Assembly: GCF_025602895.1 (NCBI RefSeq)
Contig: NW_026516207.1
Span: 558,001-622,000, forward strand
DNA from: Polychytrium aggregatum
Lineage: Eukaryota; Chytridiomycota; Chytridiomycetes; Polychytriales
Direction: 5' to 3'
DNA length: 64,000 nucleotides
Positions 2,228 to 17,476 of this stretch are shown piece by piece. The position numbers and the translations under genes were made by a program. Below the pieces are notes generated by a model. That model saw only the letters and a program-made list of their open reading frames with translations, made no database searches and had not been told where the DNA came from. Each line of letters starts with the position of its first letter. Position 1 is the stretch's first letter.

Positions 2228-3435
2228 TTATTTGTCGCTCAGCTTGCGCTCGTATTCGCGGTGGCGGATCAGCATCTCGTCGATCATCGAGAACGAGAAC
2301 GGCGCCTTGGCAGGCTCGTCGCGAATGTACAGCATGTCGTCGCCGTCGACAGCACCCCGGACGCCCTTCAGGACCTTGATGCGCTTGACCATGGGCGAGT
2401 ACAGCGGAAAGGTCATCTCGACGCCCGTGCCCAAGACATAGTTTCGGAGCACAAAAGTGGTGCGGATCCCCTTTCGGCGGATGGCAATCAGGATGCCGGC
2501 AAAGACCTGGGTCTTGGGTCGCGATCGCGAGGTCACTTGCTCGACCAGCAGGACGGAGCCGGGCTCGACCGAGTGCGGCGAGTTGCGGTCGAAAAGCTCG
2601 CCGCGTCCGTCAAGGTCGTATCGGTCTCGGTTTTCGTGCTCGATCGACCGCATCAACCAGACCCGGTCCGTCTCGCCTCGTGGGTTCTTGTGCAGCCCAA
2701 GCTCGGCCAAGGTCTTGCCGCTGTCGCGAAGGTTTGCCAGAGGGGCAGCGGCGGGTTTTGATACAAACGGGCCGAGTGAGGTTCCGACGTCGGGATCGTC
2801 TAAAACCGCCGCAGCATTTTGCATATATGGCAGAGTCGATTTGTTCGGGTCGCCACGAAATCATCCGCCGACCACAAGGTGCACGATCCATCCGTCACGT
2901 TCGACAGTGCCCCGTGGTGATTGCGTGGACGGTGTAAGATAGTGACGTTGTGACAGCGCAGTGTTTATCCGATGGCCGCATCACAGTTGTGTGATGAACA
3001 GAGAGCGTCCGCATCGTGAGATCGTGATGAACAGAGAGCGTCCGTATTCGACAGCGTCAGTTGTTCGAAGGCAGTCGTTCCAGATCGGATGTCCGTTGTC
3101 CGTGTCGCAGGTATTGGGAATGAGTATTAGCGAGTGAGCGCGGATACCGGAGGTCTGCCTCGGCCACACCAGCCGATGCGACAGCGAAGGGCGGCAGGGA
3201 CAGTCGGACAGGGCCGTGCCGATCAGTGCGAGTCTCGGATCCAGCTTCCATGGCTCGATATCGGCAACGTCTATCGACCATGATCCATACCTTCAGCTTG
3301 CTTCTTTTTCTGGCCCGTTTTGGCCTCGGCGTAATGGCGGATCTGGACTCGAGCGACGCATGCTGATGGCAGCAGTGACGAGCAGCTGCCCATGGCCCGG
3401 GAGGGAATGAAGCGCTTGATCATTGAGGCGTTCAT
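2228..3435 (-). CDS. MRPL19: Mitochondrial large-subunit ribosomal protein bL19m
   Basis: Structural protein of the mitochondrial large ribosomal subunit. Exon 1 (3435-3291) encodes an Arg/Ser-rich mitochondrial presequence beginning MNASMIKRFIPSRAM and ending near RHYAEAKTGQKKK. Exon 2 (2799-2228) encodes the L19 core. Both exons join in phase 1 across a 491-nt GT-AG intron (donor GTATGG, acceptor TTTTAG). The core shows SVLLVEQ, FAGILIAIRRKGIRTTF, VLRNYVLGTGVEMTFPLY and SPMVKRIKVLK, the typical bL19 beta-barrel sequence. Predicted length is 238 residues, normal for a fungal bL19m. An in-frame ATG at 2824 could suggest a one-exon gene, but it would lack the targeting peptide and it lies inside the intron of this model. 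The intron contains an 18-nt direct duplication near 2993-3050. Confidence 0.88.
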
Positions 3436-4646
3436 GGCTGTGTCGCTTGTATCGATTGTGAAGGGCGTGTGTGTTGGCGAGGAGGGTGAGGAGTCAAGTG
3501 AAGCGGGGATTCCGACGGTCTCGAAGGATACGCTTTGGGGAGCTTGAGTGGAGGGGACAGATGCTGTTCTGAGTGCCGGAAAGGCTGGTGTGGTTGGGAT
3601 GCTGGTAAGCCTCGACAAGTCCAGATCGAGCGAGAGACAGGCGCACAGACACGGCAAACGTCGATTGTCAATCGATGGAACGGTAGGCAGAGCAGGGCTG
3701 CTTGAGCGAAGCAAAGGCCAGGAGGAAGAGGAGGAGAAGGCCAACGGGCGGCTGCCTTGATTGCTTTCGCAGGACCAGCCGGATCGGATCGGATCGGTTT
3801 CGTGACAGTGCGAAAATGAAAAACGCAAGGCCGACTTTTTCTTCAGGACCACGCCGACCAACCACACGCGCGCAGGCCGTTAGGTAAGCGAGGCACGTGA
3901 TACACCAAAGACGCACGGAAATGCACGGAAATGCACAGAAATGCGCTGTGTATCAGGGCCCCCCATGACACCGGCCCCTCCCCAGGATGCAGCGCAGGTT
4001 CAGTTCATTTTGCGGTCCCTTTGATGTTATTTTTTCCTCCTTCGGATGAGCAGAACACGAGCGAGGATTCGACAGGTTCGAGCCGGATACGAGAGAACAC
4101 AACTGCGGGATGGAAATGACGCAAAGTGACATGAAGTCTAGACCATGGAAGGGGCGTGGGATGAAGATAGAAATGCTATGGATACACATGCTCTATATGA
4201 ATTGGGGAGGGGAGAGAGGAGGGGGGTGTGGCGATGATGCCTCGGCGATCGGAATCCTACGAACACAAGAGGAAAGAAACATCGGAGGGGCGGGCGCATG
4301 GCCATGAGAGCGGTGAAACCAACATAGAACAGGGTGCAAGCGCGAACTTGTTCAGGGTAAAGCTTGCAAGAAATGGGTGCGGTGAGAATAGTGACGATAG
4401 CTAGCTGTAGCGCGAGATTAAGGGAGGGAGGAAGTAAAAAGGGAAATGGAAATGAAAGTGGAAACGGGCAGTGACGAGGATGGTCGCAATTAAAGTAAGA
4501 CCATCCCTCGGGCAGCACAACGACGGCAAAGTGTCTGCACGAATTGAAGCCCATGTGCCTTGTGGCCGGACCAGGAGGCGCTCTCCGGGGCCCGACCAGG
4601 CATTACGGCCCAGATATGCAATGACAGAGCCGTCCGGTGTCGCGGC
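3436..4646. other. Intergenic region between bL19m and the HMG-box gene
   Basis: No gene recognised. About 1.2 kb lying upstream of bL19m and downstream of the HMG-box gene. It is less GC-rich than coding parts around 4000-4460, with A/G-rich stretches, consistent with UTR and promoter sequence. Confidence 0.5.
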
Positions 4647-13340: not shown

Positions 13341-13798
13341 GGCTTCAGATGAATTGCAGGATATTGTGCAGGGGCTCGGGGGCGAGGCGGGACGGTGCGA
13401 TACGGTGCGATGCGATGCGATGCGGTGCGATGCAATGCGATCGGATGGGTATGTTCGATCTGCTGGGGGGCTGCCGCTCTTTTTGAGGGTCGGCTGTCTC
13501 GTCACAAGCCCGGTTCGAGTGACACTATGAAAAAATTTCTTGTTAAAAAAATGAGCGAGAACGAAAAAACGCGCTCTCGGAGCCACCTCGGTCGGCGAGA
13601 AGAGCAGTCTCTGGCGAGAAGCCTCTCGCCGTCACACGCACACACACTTTGCACAAGGGAGTCAAACACCTCCCATCGACCATCCCGAGGGATGGCAACC
13701 CCGAAGTGGACTGCCCAGAATATGGGCGACCCGGCATCCACTGTCGAAATGCACAAGGAACAAGATGCTTACAGTCTATCCAGAAAGAAACGGGACAG
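13341..13798 (-). other. Fanzor 3' flank / GlnRS promoter; candidate omega-RNA region
   Basis: In studied Fanzor and TnpB loci the guide (omega) RNA comes from the 3' end of the nuclease gene and the adjoining flank. Here that flank holds perfect inverted repeats. One has an 8-bp stem CCAGAAAG/CTTTCTGG at 13780-13787 and 13802-13809, spanning the stop codon. A second is a 7-bp palindrome CCATCCC/GGGATGG at 13680-13695. A third is a 7-bp stem GGCGAGA/TCTCGCC with a 4-nt loop at 13613-13630, with a second GGCGAGA copy at 13594. The same region must contain the GlnRS promoter and 5' UTR, with GCGAT microsatellite sequence near 13393-13440. The element end and guide boundary cannot be fixed from one copy, so omega-RNA identity is inference. 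Confidence 0.35.
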
Positions 13799-16375
13799 TC
13801 ACTTTCTGGCTTCTGAAGCCCGCTGACTGACTTGTAGGCCCAGCGGGCAGGCCGTGAGATTGTTTCCCGTCCTGGTTGGCAATCTCTTTGTTTTGGTTGG
13901 TTTCGGGAGCACAGTCTTGAATAGACCCGGTCGATCTCCTGTGGCGATGATCGACTGGCATACCGAGATCATGTTCCTGGCTGCATTGATGTCTCGATCC
14001 CACAGCGTATGGCAGCTTGCACAGCTCCGGACAAAGTGTGGTTTCTCGATATCAAGATGCTCGGGTGACTCGAGTCGCTTGGCTTCCCGGCAATGTGAGC
14101 ACACCTGGGATGTGTTGAACTCGTTCACCGAGCACACATGGATCTTGGAGACGGATGGGTCTGGTGGGCGTCTCTGGTGGTGGGTGAACTGCTCGAAGTA
14201 CTTGGCAAACCTGAGTCTCCGTGGGCTGGAAGCATATCCCTTCCCCTGTTTCCAGGATGCATTCCCAAAGGCAATCACCACTTCGGTCTCCCTTGGTGCC
14301 TGGTCAATGACCTGCTTGCACATTTCATGGACGGTGCGCTGTCTCTTGCTGTGGAGATCGAGTCGCTTGAATCGCCGTCGCCGGGTCAGGCTGAAGTACA
14401 GCTGCTTGTCCAGCATGTCTCCATCGAACACATGGCGAATGTATCGCAAGAAGGGAGCCAACCCAGGGATCTTGGGACTTGGTGTGGTGCTCATCCATTT
14501 CTGCAGACCAAGGATCTTGTGGGTGCTCTGTATCCACTTGGTCGCCTGGGTGGTGCCACATCGATGCTGGTACTCCTTGTTGGAGAACGACACGATCTTC
14601 TCGTTGGCGCGCTGTGCCTTGGTCACCTTGACACCGTCTTGCTCCTGGATGGATGGTTGACTGGGTGCTCGAATGACAGCGGTGAAGATCGATCCCACAC
14701 CAGGGTCGATCCCAATCCATGTGGTCCGAGAGTCGTCAATGGGACCGACCCTGGTCTGGATCTTCTTCTCGGGAGTGAGCTTGAGTGTCTTGTCGTCCTT
14801 GTCCACGGTTTCTGGCTTGGCATCAGGGTCCTTCTTCTCCAGGATCTTGTATCTGAGCGTGGTGATTGAACACCCGACCCCATCGGTGGTGATCTCGCAA
14901 CCAAAGAGCTGCTTCCCCTCCTCCCTGGCACCAAAGAGTCTCGGATCCAGCTTGAAGTTGGTCTGCCAGAAGATCTCTTGCTTTGTGGTGCCATTGACCT
15001 TGGTCTTCAGGTCGTCCCACTTGAGACCAGTGCCAGTCTGGTATCCAAGGATTTCCCACAGTGCTTTGGTGTCGAGCTTGACATACTTAGCTCTGGCATC
15101 GCAGAGCGGGACCAAGGTGCACTGTGCTCGAGGGGTGTTGAGGCGCTTCTTGGTCTGGGCAAGCCGGTCGGTCAGTCGCTTGATCCGCTTCGTGTTGACA
15201 GCGATCTGCTTGCACACCTCCTCGTGCTGGGTCTGGAGTGCGTTGTATTGATCCGACTGCCTACGTTCGATGGGTTGACACATCTCCTCGTTCAGTCGTC
15301 CACGCTCTCCTTTCAGAACATCGGTATCCCTCACGAGCCTGGGAATGATCATCTTCTGAAAGACCACCATGAAGAGGGCCTCCTTCAGGTGGGTCAGGCG
15401 AGAGACCTCACTGGCCAGAATTGATACGACTTTGTACAGGTCCTGGTGGCTTTCGTACCGAAACTCATACAACTGGTCGGCATGGTGGGCGAAGGATTTC
15501 CTCAGATCACCGAGGAGTGTCTTGGAGAGGGGATTCTCCATCAGCTTCATACACTCATCGACGTGTGTATGACGTTTCACATCCTTGGGAGCAACCAGGA
15601 CCAAATTGCAGTATCGGCGTAGAAGGGACCAATACCGATCGAGAATATGGGTCTCGCAGTTGACAGCATAGGTCTTGACAGCCAAACCAAGGACCTGTGA
15701 ACCAGTACCCTTTGGAAGGGACACTGGAGGCAGGATACACGTCTCACTCCATGCACGTCGATACAGCTCATATGTGTCGAGGAGGTGCCTGTCATCTTCT
15801 GGGGTGTTCGTCTTGGCACCCACTGTTCCTGTTTGCACCATATTGAAGCATTTTCGAACGAACGCGGGTTCACTCGACGACACAGTGGGGAGGGTGATGC
15901 CCTCGTCCAAGCACCGCCTGAGATGCAGCTCCAGGAGACGAGATGCTTCGTACTGCACGTGTGTCATGGCTCGGACAGTATCCTCGATCTTGTCGTGCAA
16001 GGTGTCGTTCTTGATGATGGCATCGAGAGTGCACTTGACGGTGGAGTAGTCGGCCTTGACTTGCTCGTTTGGGCCACAGTCAGGCAAGGTAGAGCTCCAG
16101 AGTGGGTTATAGAAACGGCACTTTGGGGTGTTGCTTCTGGCATGACCCACTTGCTTGCACGTGGCACATACAGGGACCTTGGGTGCTTGGCTGACCATTT
16201 CAGCGACCGAGGCAGGGCTGCTGTCGATTCTGGCTGTGCACTTCTTGGTGAAGGGTTTGACATGGTTGGTCAGGCCACAGGCACGAAACGATTTGATGAC
16301 GGGTTTCTTGGCCACAGGAGAATCATTGGGTGATCCCGGGTCGGGATCGGGGGGTGTCTTTCTCTTGGGAGCCAT
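13799..16375 (-). CDS. Fanzor RNA-guided DNA endonuclease (eukaryotic TnpB homologue)
   Basis: Intact single-exon gene of 858 residues from the ATG at 16375 (878 from an upstream in-frame ATG at 16435). The C-terminal half has the RuvC-like nuclease order: RuvC-I WIGIDPGVGSIFTAV with D557; a beta strand EVVIAFGNASW (about 697-708) where the TnpB RuvC-II acid is absent; NEFNTSQVCSHC with E752, which fits the relocated glutamate described for Fanzors; a zinc finger with C759, C762, C785 and C788; and RuvC-III LWDRDINAARNM with D793/D795. N-terminal Cys/His motifs ACGLTNH and CATCKQVGHARSNTPKC resemble zinc knuckles. The N terminus MAPKRK and the C-terminal PKPTKTKR are basic, consistent with nuclear import. 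A long alpha-helical middle (about 300-430) fits the guide-binding lobe. No transposase lies nearby. Family call is strong; activity is untested. Confidence 0.93.
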   Translation of the reverse strand: MAPKRKTPPDPDPGSPNDSPVAKKPVIKSFRACGLTNHVKPFTKKCTARIDSSPASVAEMVSQAPKVPVCATCKQVGHARSNTPKCRFYNPLWSSTLPDCGPNEQVKADYSTVKCTLDAIIKNDTLHDKIEDTVRAMTHVQYEASRLLELHLRRCLDEGITLPTVSSSEPAFVRKCFNMVQTGTVGAKTNTPEDDRHLLDTYELYRRAWSETCILPPVSLPKGTGSQVLGLAVKTYAVNCETHILDRYWSLLRRYCNLVLVAPKDVKRHTHVDECMKLMENPLSKTLLGDLRKSFAHHADQLYEFRYESHQDLYKVVSILASEVSRLTHLKEALFMVVFQKMIIPRLVRDTDVLKGERGRLNEEMCQPIERRQSDQYNALQTQHEEVCKQIAVNTKRIKRLTDRLAQTKKRLNTPRAQCTLVPLCDARAKYVKLDTKALWEILGYQTGTGLKWDDLKTKVNGTTKQEIFWQTNFKLDPRLFGAREEGKQLFGCEITTDGVGCSITTLRYKILEKKDPDAKPETVDKDDKTLKLTPEKKIQTRVGPIDDSRTTWIGIDPGVGSIFTAVIRAPSQPSIQEQDGVKVTKAQRANEKIVSFSNKEYQHRCGTTQATKWIQSTHKILGLQKWMSTTPSPKIPGLAPFLRYIRHVFDGDMLDKQLYFSLTRRRRFKRLDLHSKRQRTVHEMCKQVIDQAPRETEVVIAFGNASWKQGKGYASSPRRLRFAKYFEQFTHHQRRPPDPSVSKIHVCSVNEFNTSQVCSHCREAKRLESPEHLDIEKPHFVRSCASCHTLWDRDINAARNMISVCQSIIATGDRPGLFKTVLPKPTKTKRLPTRTGNNLTACPLGLQVSQRASEARK

Positions 16376-17476
16376 CTGGCGAGAAAATAGCAGCGATGGC
16401 TGGTTCTTGTCAGGAACGGAGCTGGACTTTGGCACCAGACAGCTGATGGTAGTCGAACGGACGGTCGTAGGACGAAGGGGAGTGTATTCAATAGGCTAAG
16501 GGCAGGATACAAGAGGCAAGGTGAGGTGCTGGTTCTGAGGCCACAGCACCTCGTTTATATCTCTAAACGCCGTCCTTGTTCGCCGCAGATTTTTCTTCCA
16601 CTACAAAGGAGATTGGTTATCTGCGACGGGGGGAGATTAGATCCGAACGTTTCCCTCGCCCGCCGGGAAGTTTCATGTCAGTGCCTTACCCAACATTGCA
16701 CATCAAGGAAACAGGACACGGGTTGGGGCGCCCATGAAACCATCCACCGGGCGTGGGAACGCGGTTCATGACAGTTCTGCCCTTGGGGAAGAAAAATTCT
16801 CCTCAAAACCAGCGCATTTTGGGCTGGCAGAGATACTGCGCAGTGGCGTCCTTGATTCAGATCCAGAAACGCATCGCTCGCTCAATCAGTCGTGGGAAGA
16901 CATCTTGTCAAGGTGAGTCTTGCCTGATAGCCAAACGATCATGTCATCTCGCTGACACACAGCCACGCTTGACTAGGTTTCCAACCAGAGAGATTCAGAT
17001 GGTGGTGGTTCTTGTCCGCAATCGGAGTGGAGCTTCCAACAATGATACAATTGGTCATTCCTCCACACCAATTGCCCACCACCACCGTCAATCGGCTCAA
17101 GGTGATACCAAATGCCGTCAACCGACCATGGCCGGATTCCAACTTTTGCTGCGCCACATACAACGTGACTTTCAGGTGACCGAGATGAGCAGCCACGAGG
17201 GGGCCGGAAAAATTGATAGTGTGAGTCAGGCGGATGTGCGCAGCAGGCTGGCCGGCGTGACTGAGACAGCAACGAACCGACAACCACAACGCAGCGGAGC
17301 AGCCGTATCGCAGTGTATTTGCAGATCAACGCAATGCATGTGTGTGCTGGCATGATCCTGTCTGCTTGTGCAGCGACATTTGGCAAGCAATCAATCACAT
17401 GTCCCTGTCGGCTATCGAGGGAGCGACAGCCCGGAGGCCGCCGACGGCATGGCAAAAGCGCGGAGATTGCCCGACA
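16376..17476. other. Region upstream of Fanzor, downstream of shugoshin
   Basis: About 1.1 kb without a supportable gene. It should contain the Fanzor promoter, the Fanzor element's left boundary if it is mobile, and the shugoshin 3' UTR. Local base composition is more even than in the flanking genes. No clear terminal inverted repeat matching the other side of the Fanzor gene was found by eye. Confidence 0.5.
16523..16560 (-). promoter_or_regulatory. Perfect 9-bp hairpin beside a TATA-like box upstream of Fanzor
   Basis: GAGGTGCTG at 16523-16531 pairs exactly with CAGCACCTC at 16544-16552 around a 12-nt loop. On the Fanzor strand an ATATAAA box lies immediately upstream (16560-16554), about 180 nt before the chosen ATG. 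It could be a promoter plus 5' UTR stem-loop, or part of a transposon left end. Confidence 0.4.

What the first reader, a model, noticed from the sequence alone, without database searches (positions are those of the whole stretch)
13799..16375. Intact Fanzor nuclease gene in a fungal genome
The 858-residue frame carries the complete Fanzor/TnpB nuclease order: DPG (D557), NEFNTS (E752), a CxxC...CxxC zinc finger and DRD (D793/D795), plus N-terminal Cys/His motifs and a basic N terminus. There is no frameshift or stop. The TnpB RuvC-II acid position in EVVIAFGNASW lacks Asp/Glu, and a Glu sits beside the zinc finger instead, as reported for Fanzors. Chytrid Fanzors are among the few shown to cut DNA in an RNA-guided way, so this looks like a candidate active enzyme.
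Basis: partly seen in the sequence, partly recalled or inferred. Interest (0 to 1): 0.95.

Follow-up and report, generated by a model that had tools for sequence, protein, structure and literature searches.

The report
Fanzor riding a carrier-switched transposon
This fungal gene is a genuine Fanzor, a relative of CRISPR cutting enzymes, but it is one of dozens of copies of a jumping DNA element that appears to have picked the Fanzor up from a different kind of transposon, and the many copies suggest where its guide RNA and its target signal lie.

The parts
13523..17221 (-). Whole element, 3,699 bp, Fanzor the only long frame; ends CACTATCAATTTTT...AATTTTTTCATAGTG
   Evidence: Loss of similarity at both ends against the copies among 30 loci; both ends read in 38 copies
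17222..17224 (-). Left copy of the 3-bp target-site duplication (TCA)
   Evidence: 38 of 53 distinct insertions have an exact 3-bp duplication
13520..13522 (-). Right copy of the target-site duplication (TCA)
17225..17227 (-). GAC, the left-side RRM motif (positions -6 to -4); candidate part of the target-adjacent motif
   Evidence: RRM in 24 of 38 left flanks, 7 of 38 mirrored right flanks; this copy fits
16853..16905 (-). Fossil of the 3' end of a Tc1/mariner (IS630-type) transposase gene
   Evidence: 47/53 identical to the family-B transposase gene tail; the family-B protein is Pfam DDE_3, E 6.4e-24
16408..16773 (-). 366-bp segment upstream of the ATG, present in about 41% of 27 copies
13799..16375 (-). 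Fanzor1 coding sequence, 858 aa
16238..16288 (-). First zinc-knuckle-like motif, residues 30-46; Cys30 is Phe in this copy only
16118..16168 (-). Second zinc-knuckle-like motif, residues 70-86, intact
   Evidence: invariant in alignment A1
14705..14707 (-). RuvC catalytic Asp, D557 (SpuFz1 D383)
14120..14122 (-). Displaced catalytic Glu, E752 (SpuFz1 E541)
13991..13993 (-). RuvC catalytic Asp, D795 (SpuFz1 D606)
13770..13813 (-). Fossil right terminal repeat of the family-B Tc1/mariner-type element, ending in TA
   Evidence: 40/44 identical to the family-B right end
13523..13741 (-). Conserved, structured 3' arm; candidate omega-RNA scaffold (this copy lacks 21 nt of it)
   Evidence: diversity 0.026 overall, 0.008 in its first 80 nt, against 0.122 at third codon positions; fold z -2.57; 303-nt version z -3.69; alignment A2
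13503..13522 (-). Predicted guide: flanking DNA read past the right end; lies upstream of the glutaminyl-tRNA synthetase ATG (13340), 182 nt between element and ATG
   Evidence: inference from SpuFz1 (PMC10432273, section 7 read); gene position

Best explanation
The frame encodes a Fanzor1, the cargo of a non-autonomous DNA transposon with CACTA-like ends. The element arose when a Tc1/mariner-type element carrying transposase plus Fanzor lost its left end and most of the transposase and came under new outer ends; it then multiplied by borrowing a transposase from elsewhere. Working model: the 3' arm is transcribed past the right end as an omega-RNA whose last bases, the flanking DNA, are the guide. 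Fanzor bound to it recognises the vacated insertion site next to a motif of the type R-R-M-Y on the left side and cuts it, so that repair from a filled copy restores the element. Shown here: Fanzor1 identity, element ends and duplications, fossils of the previous carrier, low dN/dS, arm conservation, left-only motif. Inferred: transcription, guide, cutting, restoration.
Against: No RNA or activity data. The element's own transposase was not found. The motif was chosen on the same data and could be a transposase preference. The optional 366-bp segment is as uniform (0.012) as the arm, and the last 59 nt of the arm are less uniform (0.043), so the arm may be young rather than constrained. No empty site was found at the 4 sites tested. 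The 1.6-kb derivatives multiplied without a whole Fanzor gene, so an intact Fanzor is not needed in cis. The predicted model is only moderate (pLDDT 65, pTM 0.59). Exchange or assembly mixing between copies blurs dN/dS.
Confidence: 0.66

Rival explanations
1. Pure passenger: the Fanzor is an old cargo gene carried by a transposon and no longer does anything for it; low dN/dS only reflects selection in the earlier Tc1/mariner-type carrier, and variants of that pool were spread by exchange.
For: Derivatives without the gene multiplied as well: 27 of the 65 end pairs recovered are 1,550-1,639 bp. The window copy and others have lesions.
Against: dN/dS stays 0.29 among nearest pairs; D557 is kept in all 53 copies and E752 and D795 in all 51 that reach that far; one-sided motif and conserved 3' arm.
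Confidence: 0.2
2. Relic guide: the functional RNA ends at the fossil family-B right terminal repeat, so that the guide is element-internal (AGCATCTTGTTCC... in this copy) and attacks elements or sites that lack the Fanzor insertion, a homing drive between elements.
For: The fossil end and its hairpin persist: 40/44 identity and an 8-bp stem in the predicted fold. The repeat core (element 3424-3452) is an island of low diversity, 0.030, between 0.150 before it and 0.092 after it.
Against: The would-be guide (3453-3480) varies between copies (0.092), so it is not one fixed guide; an internal guide would give no reason for a motif at the insertion sites; no element with these ends and without a Fanzor-derived interior was identified, though only two derivatives were read in full (L054, L055).
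Confidence: 0.08
3. The left-only motif is the target preference of the missing transposase, and the 3' arm is conserved because the transposase binds it.
For: The motif runs into the target duplication, which a transposase chooses; it is also present in derivatives without a whole Fanzor gene.
Against: A symmetrical pair of ends usually gives a mirror-symmetrical preference (general knowledge), which is absent (information at +4 to +10 is 0.01-0.08 bit, left side up to 0.71 outside the duplication); the 1.6-kb derivatives keep the 3' arm (L054) and could be served in trans; S. punctatus shows the same pattern and there it is part of the TAM.
Confidence: 0.25

Closest known systems
SpuFz1 and the Spu-1 elements of the chytrid Spizellomyces punctatus (PMC10432273; structures 8gkh, 9ceu-9cez)
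   Same: Fanzor1 fold and catalytic residues; one-gene element with terminal repeats; many copies and gene-less 'ghosts'; conserved bases upstream of the left end in both; no transposase found between the ends
   Different: SpuFz1 is shorter (SPu-1-1p, 633 aa, TA duplications in PMC3627910) with 30-nt repeats; here 858 aa with two N-terminal zinc-knuckle-like motifs, CACTA-like ends, 3-bp duplication, a longer conserved 3' arm and fossils of an earlier carrier
Fanzor1 in Mariner, Helitron, IS4, Sola and MuDr elements (PMC3627910, passages seen)
   Same: Fanzor1 captured by different transposon superfamilies, some without transposase
   Different: No CACTA/EnSpm carrier named in its main text (0 occurrences); here the step from one carrier to another is still readable in the sequence
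Family B of this genome: TA-flanked element with a DDE_3 transposase plus Fanzor
   Same: Homologous Fanzor: in the genome search the ten B copies match ours at 78-87% amino-acid identity over about residues 53-852; its transposase tail and right end survive in our element
   Different: Own transposase, TA flanks, 26-bp imperfect terminal repeats (compared by eye), stop at codon 831 in 5 of 10 copies
CACTA/EnSpm transposons
   Same: Ends begin CACTA; 3-bp target duplication (defining features recalled)
   Different: No CACTA-type transposase with these ends found; PF02992 has 29 matches in the genome, the nearest 12 kb from a listed end on the shared contigs compared

Membership tests
Fanzor1 | Sequence-profile relation to characterised Fanzor1 proteins | tested here: met
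   SpuFz1 E 1.2e-23, 86.7 bits; next best LaTranC 2.9e-5
Fanzor1 | RuvC/TNB plus enlarged REC fold nearest to Fanzor1 structures | tested here: met
Fanzor1 | Catalytic Asp / Glu in the loop before the TNB domain / Asp or Asn | tested here: met
   D557, E752, D795 align with SpuFz1 D383, E541, D606; layout as described in PMC11423790 (passages)
Fanzor1 | omega-RNA from the element's right end, guide from the flank | tested here: inconclusive
   Conserved, structured right arm; no RNA data
Fanzor1 | RNA-guided DNA cleavage next to a TAM | not testable with these tools
   Only a candidate motif
CACTA/EnSpm transposon | CACTA ends | tested here: met
   5' CACTAT in 33 of 38 and 3' ATAGTG in 36 of 38 copies
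CACTA/EnSpm transposon | 3-bp target-site duplication | tested here: met
   38 of 53
CACTA/EnSpm transposon | CACTA (PF02992) transposase acting on these ends | tested here: inconclusive
   None seen inside the element; 29 PF02992 matches elsewhere, no link shown
Tc1/mariner (IS630-type) element, for family B | TA duplication and DDE_3 transposase between terminal inverted repeats | tested here: met
   TA on both sides in 6 of 9 copies displayed, the other 3 cut or changed at one end; DDE_3 E 6.4e-24 in L039, the one copy tested

The most novel reading that the evidence does not exclude
The Fanzor not only restores its own element but drives constant DNA exchange among its dispersed copies. 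Dozens of copies then behave like one recombining population: variants are in near linkage equilibrium beyond 50 bp, and the two alleles of a site differ by up to 5% inside the element while their flanks are 99.5-100% identical.
Probability: 0.12. Interest if true: 0.88.

Novelty: new variant of a known kind. Interest (0 to 1): 0.56.

Why it matters
PMC10432273 states that the biological role of Fanzors is unknown (section 11, read). This genome offers a natural comparison in one organism: full elements, derivatives that keep the RNA arm but lack most of the gene, short derivatives with part of the arm, and the ancestral type of carrier with its own transposase. It yields concrete predictions: an RNA ending in the flank, and a TAM of the type R-R-M-Y. 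It also preserves a step that is normally only inferred, a Fanzor moving from one transposon type to another while the sequence at its right end changes.

Tried and rejected
Viral relatives: one scan of viral contigs with alignment A1 found none (13 pattern matches, none confirmed). Rfam: one sub-threshold match on the other strand (RF02216, 24.8 bits, cut-off 45), taken as chance. Covariation of the 3' arm: not counted, because the arms hardly vary outside a TG repeat. Autonomous partner: nearest pairing of the listed ends gave no pair between 3.9 and 25 kb; 64 of 100 listed 5' ends have the conserved RNA block downstream among the 100 listed blocks, so I found no separate vehicle, but the three lists are cut at 100 of 126, 123 and 150. 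Empty sites: 0 of 4 sites tested. Haplotype control for the mosaic pattern by DNA search: a 13-kb window query listed neither the window's own place nor contig C392, so this route was dropped. PDB match for the family-B transposase: none. Fixed-guide idea: see rivals. VIA-align lists no Fanzor2 among the rows shown, which says nothing (Foldseek lists one, 9b0l, E 1.6e-5). The binomial P of 1e-14 for RRM is not used as evidence because the motif was read off the same data.

Rows dropped before counts: of 43 family-A loci, 38 had both ends. They fall into 27 sites by left flank; L016/L019 (left end damaged) was left out, giving 26. L009, L011/L025 and L051/L053 lack a readable end. With the 1.6-kb example L054 and the 0.3-kb example L055 this gave 28; with 37 further end pairs, 65 entries, collapsed to 53 distinct left flanks. 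Six further unpaired 5' ends were fetched and shown but not counted. L032 was re-registered by one base by hand. The dN/dS set is one allele per site, without family B and without L051/L053 (29 loci); the diversity set is 27 loci. Three 3' arms with long repeats (L009, L015, L036) and the alleles were left out of A2.

Full report
WHAT IS THERE. The finding's coordinates are correct on the minus strand. The frame runs from ATG 16375 to a stop at 13799, 858 aa. Pfam's Cas12f1-like_TNB domain matches residues 745-802 at E 1.2e-9, and the TnpB and Cas12f models of NCBIfam match weakly in the same region, below their cut-offs. A single-sequence search of PDB sequences gave nothing below E 0.1.

COPY NUMBER. 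The genome search scored 53 of 1,630 candidates, and the 53 places are near-full-length or long copies, 78-100% identical; by my count of the table 34 of 53 show no stop in the match. Forty-three belong to family A (ours, counting alleles and two 3'-truncated copies; about 30 sites) and ten to family B.

FAMILY A. Copies lose similarity at window 17221 and 13523. The ends are CACTAT (33 of 38) and ATAGTG (36 of 38). Of 53 distinct insertion sites, 38 have an exact 3-bp duplication; in the first 28, 20 matched, against a mean of 3.4 in 20,000 shuffles, maximum 10. Genome-wide the 5' end has 126 matches and the 3' end 123, reversed controls 0. Pairing the 100 listed of each gave 65 pairs in discrete sizes: 4 of 278-295 bp, 27 of 1,550-1,639 bp, 19 of 3,331-3,449 bp, 12 of 3,700-3,876 bp and single ones of 665, 1,436 and 2,614 bp; 35 of 100 stayed unpaired. 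Only two derivatives were read in full: the 1.6-kb example L054 is an internal deletion that keeps about the last 250 codons and the 3' arm; the 0.3-kb example L055 keeps 89 bp of the left end and 156 bp of the right end.

FAMILY B AND THE CARRIER SWITCH. Family B copies have TA flanks and, by eye, imperfect 26-bp terminal repeats (CAGCCAATCCAATAAAAAACGGGACA at the left). L039 encodes, upstream of the Fanzor, a DDE_3 transposase. The left repeat has 413 matches in the genome with up to 3 mismatches, control 0. Our element contains the last 53 bp of that transposase region (47/53) and the family-B right repeat with its TA (40/44); the family-B left repeat did not appear in its first 850 bp. The simplest history is that a family-B-like element lost its left part and came to lie between new ends. 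No transposase for the new ends was found; of the 29 PF02992 matches the nearest to a listed end on the contigs compared is 12 kb away.

SELECTION. Among 29 family-A loci (one allele each) dN/dS is 0.30 over 406 pairs, 0.29 for nearest pairs; 23 of 29 have no stop in codons 1-780. D557 is present in all 53 copies; E752 and D795 are present in all 51 copies that reach that far. Exchange between copies, if real, blurs dN/dS.

THE 3' ARM. Diversity over 27 sites is 0.122 at third codon positions and 0.061 at first and second. In the arm (element 3481-3699) it is 0.026: 0.008 in 3481-3560, 0.073 in the TG repeat 3561-3582, 0.016 in 3583-3640 and 0.043 in the last 59 nt. The core of the fossil repeat just before (3424-3452) has 0.030, between 0.150 on its left and 0.092 on its right, a point in favour of the relic-guide rival. 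The first 75 bp of the element vary (0.111, two versions of the left arm). The arm folds better than shuffled sequence (z -2.57 for 219 nt, 4 of 200 shuffles as good; -3.69 for 303 nt, 0 of 100). A 33-nt block of it has 150 matches genome-wide with up to 3 mismatches, control 0, and the 100 listed are all exact. Against a pure-constraint reading: the optional 366-bp segment is also nearly uniform (0.012), so the arms may simply be young and the coding region unusually varied.

THE LEFT-ONLY MOTIF. In the 38 sites with exact duplications, positions -6 to -2 carry 0.50, 0.55, 0.71, 1.29 and 0.42 bit against flank composition (simulated 95% level 0.15), and positions +4 to +10 carry 0.01-0.08. 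RRM at -6 to -4 occurs in 24 of 38 left flanks, 7 of 38 mirrored right flanks; the asymmetry was reached by 2 of 5,000 random side swaps. It is present in full elements (13 of 20) and 1.6-kb derivatives (11 of 16), and weaker where the duplication is lost (5 of 15). The motif was read off these same sites. In S. punctatus two bases, CA, are conserved upstream of the left repeat in Fanzor loci and ghost loci, and the measured TAM is CATA (PMC10432273, section 7 read in full, passages). By analogy the motif here is a candidate TAM.

THIS COPY. It is the only one of 53 with Phe at residue 30, where the others have the first Cys of an N-terminal zinc-knuckle-like motif. Its 3' arm lacks 21 nt present in the other 26 arms of A2; 34 of 38 elements keep a marker in that stretch. 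The element ends 182 nt upstream of the glutaminyl-tRNA synthetase start codon, on the same strand.

AN UNRESOLVED PATTERN. Twelve pairs of loci share nearly identical flanks on two contigs. In the eleven with both ends read, flanks are 99.5-100% identical while the elements differ by 0-5.2% outside gaps. The differences are patchy; in 795 of 890 both states occur at other loci, in 95 one does, in none neither (summed over its rows). Linkage among 351 sites in 29 copies falls from r2 0.36 within 20 bp to 0.05 at 50-100 bp; 0 of 500 position shuffles give so strong a decline, and the nearest neighbour is the same in both halves of the gene for only 5 of 29 copies. One site, judged by 20 nt on each side, holds a Fanzor element on one contig and a 1.6-kb derivative on another (L015 and L066). 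Real exchange would be remarkable, but such short-range mixing is also what a long-read consensus can make of repeats (general knowledge; I do not know how this genome was sequenced). Two pairs are identical or almost so (L020/L021, L026/L027), which a general artefact does not predict well. I treat it as open; raw reads decide. It also means that the letters of any single copy, this one included, should be checked against reads.

LITERATURE. Full-text searches: 'Fanzor' 82 papers, 40 listed; 'Fanzor'+'CACTA' none; 'Fanzor'+'Polychytri' none; 'Fanzor'+'EnSpm' 2 records of one work, where the passages describe them as separate repeats of a green alga; 'Fanzor'+'gene conversion' 5 papers, 4 listed, seen as a listing only; 'Polychytrium aggregatum' 5 papers, seen as a listing. 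PMC3627910 (passages) lists Helitron, Mariner, IS4, Sola and MuDr carriers and has no CACTA/EnSpm in its main text. PMC10711439 was seen as passages. So carriers of different kinds are known; a CACTA-like one with fossils of the previous carrier I did not find in this library, which lacks most subscription papers.

VERDICT. Real, correctly named, ordinary as a protein; unusual as an element. The most useful outcome is a set of predictions about guide, TAM and role that can be tested directly.

Noticed in passing
P0004-P0007, P0009: P. aggregatum gene models fuse C-terminal pieces of this Fanzor to unrelated host proteins (F-box protein, AMP-binding/male sterility protein, kinase). They are probably annotation joins across derivatives, but capture as exons is not excluded.
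   Followed up: partly
window 16408-16773: 366-bp segment upstream of the ATG, present in about 41% of 27 copies and nearly uniform; by element size and match layout it agrees between alleles in the pairs inspected. Its breakpoints share about 5 bp, so it may be an insertion or an alternative promoter.
   Followed up: no
codons about 53-66, e.g. L023, L024, L025, L028, L047: Extra in-frame stretch of roughly 20 residues in part of the copies; its presence differs between alleles of the same site (L018/L028, L031/L047, L011/L025).
   Followed up: no
window 13372-13441: 10-bp tandem repeat (GCGATACGGT-like) between the element and the glutaminyl-tRNA synthetase start.
   Followed up: no
L058/L114 and L024 flanks: Elements that share a right flank but not a left flank, and 15 of 53 insertions without an exact duplication, suggest recombination between elements.
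   Followed up: no
G000, family-B left repeat: 413 matches genome-wide, many of those listed in a variant form (CAGGCAATCC...), so a large Tc1/mariner-type family exists, most of it probably without Fanzor.
   Followed up: no
element positions 1-75 (window 17221-17147): Two versions of the left arm exist among family-A copies (after position about 40: GTCACCTGAAAG... or AATATGAATACACGC...).
   Followed up: no
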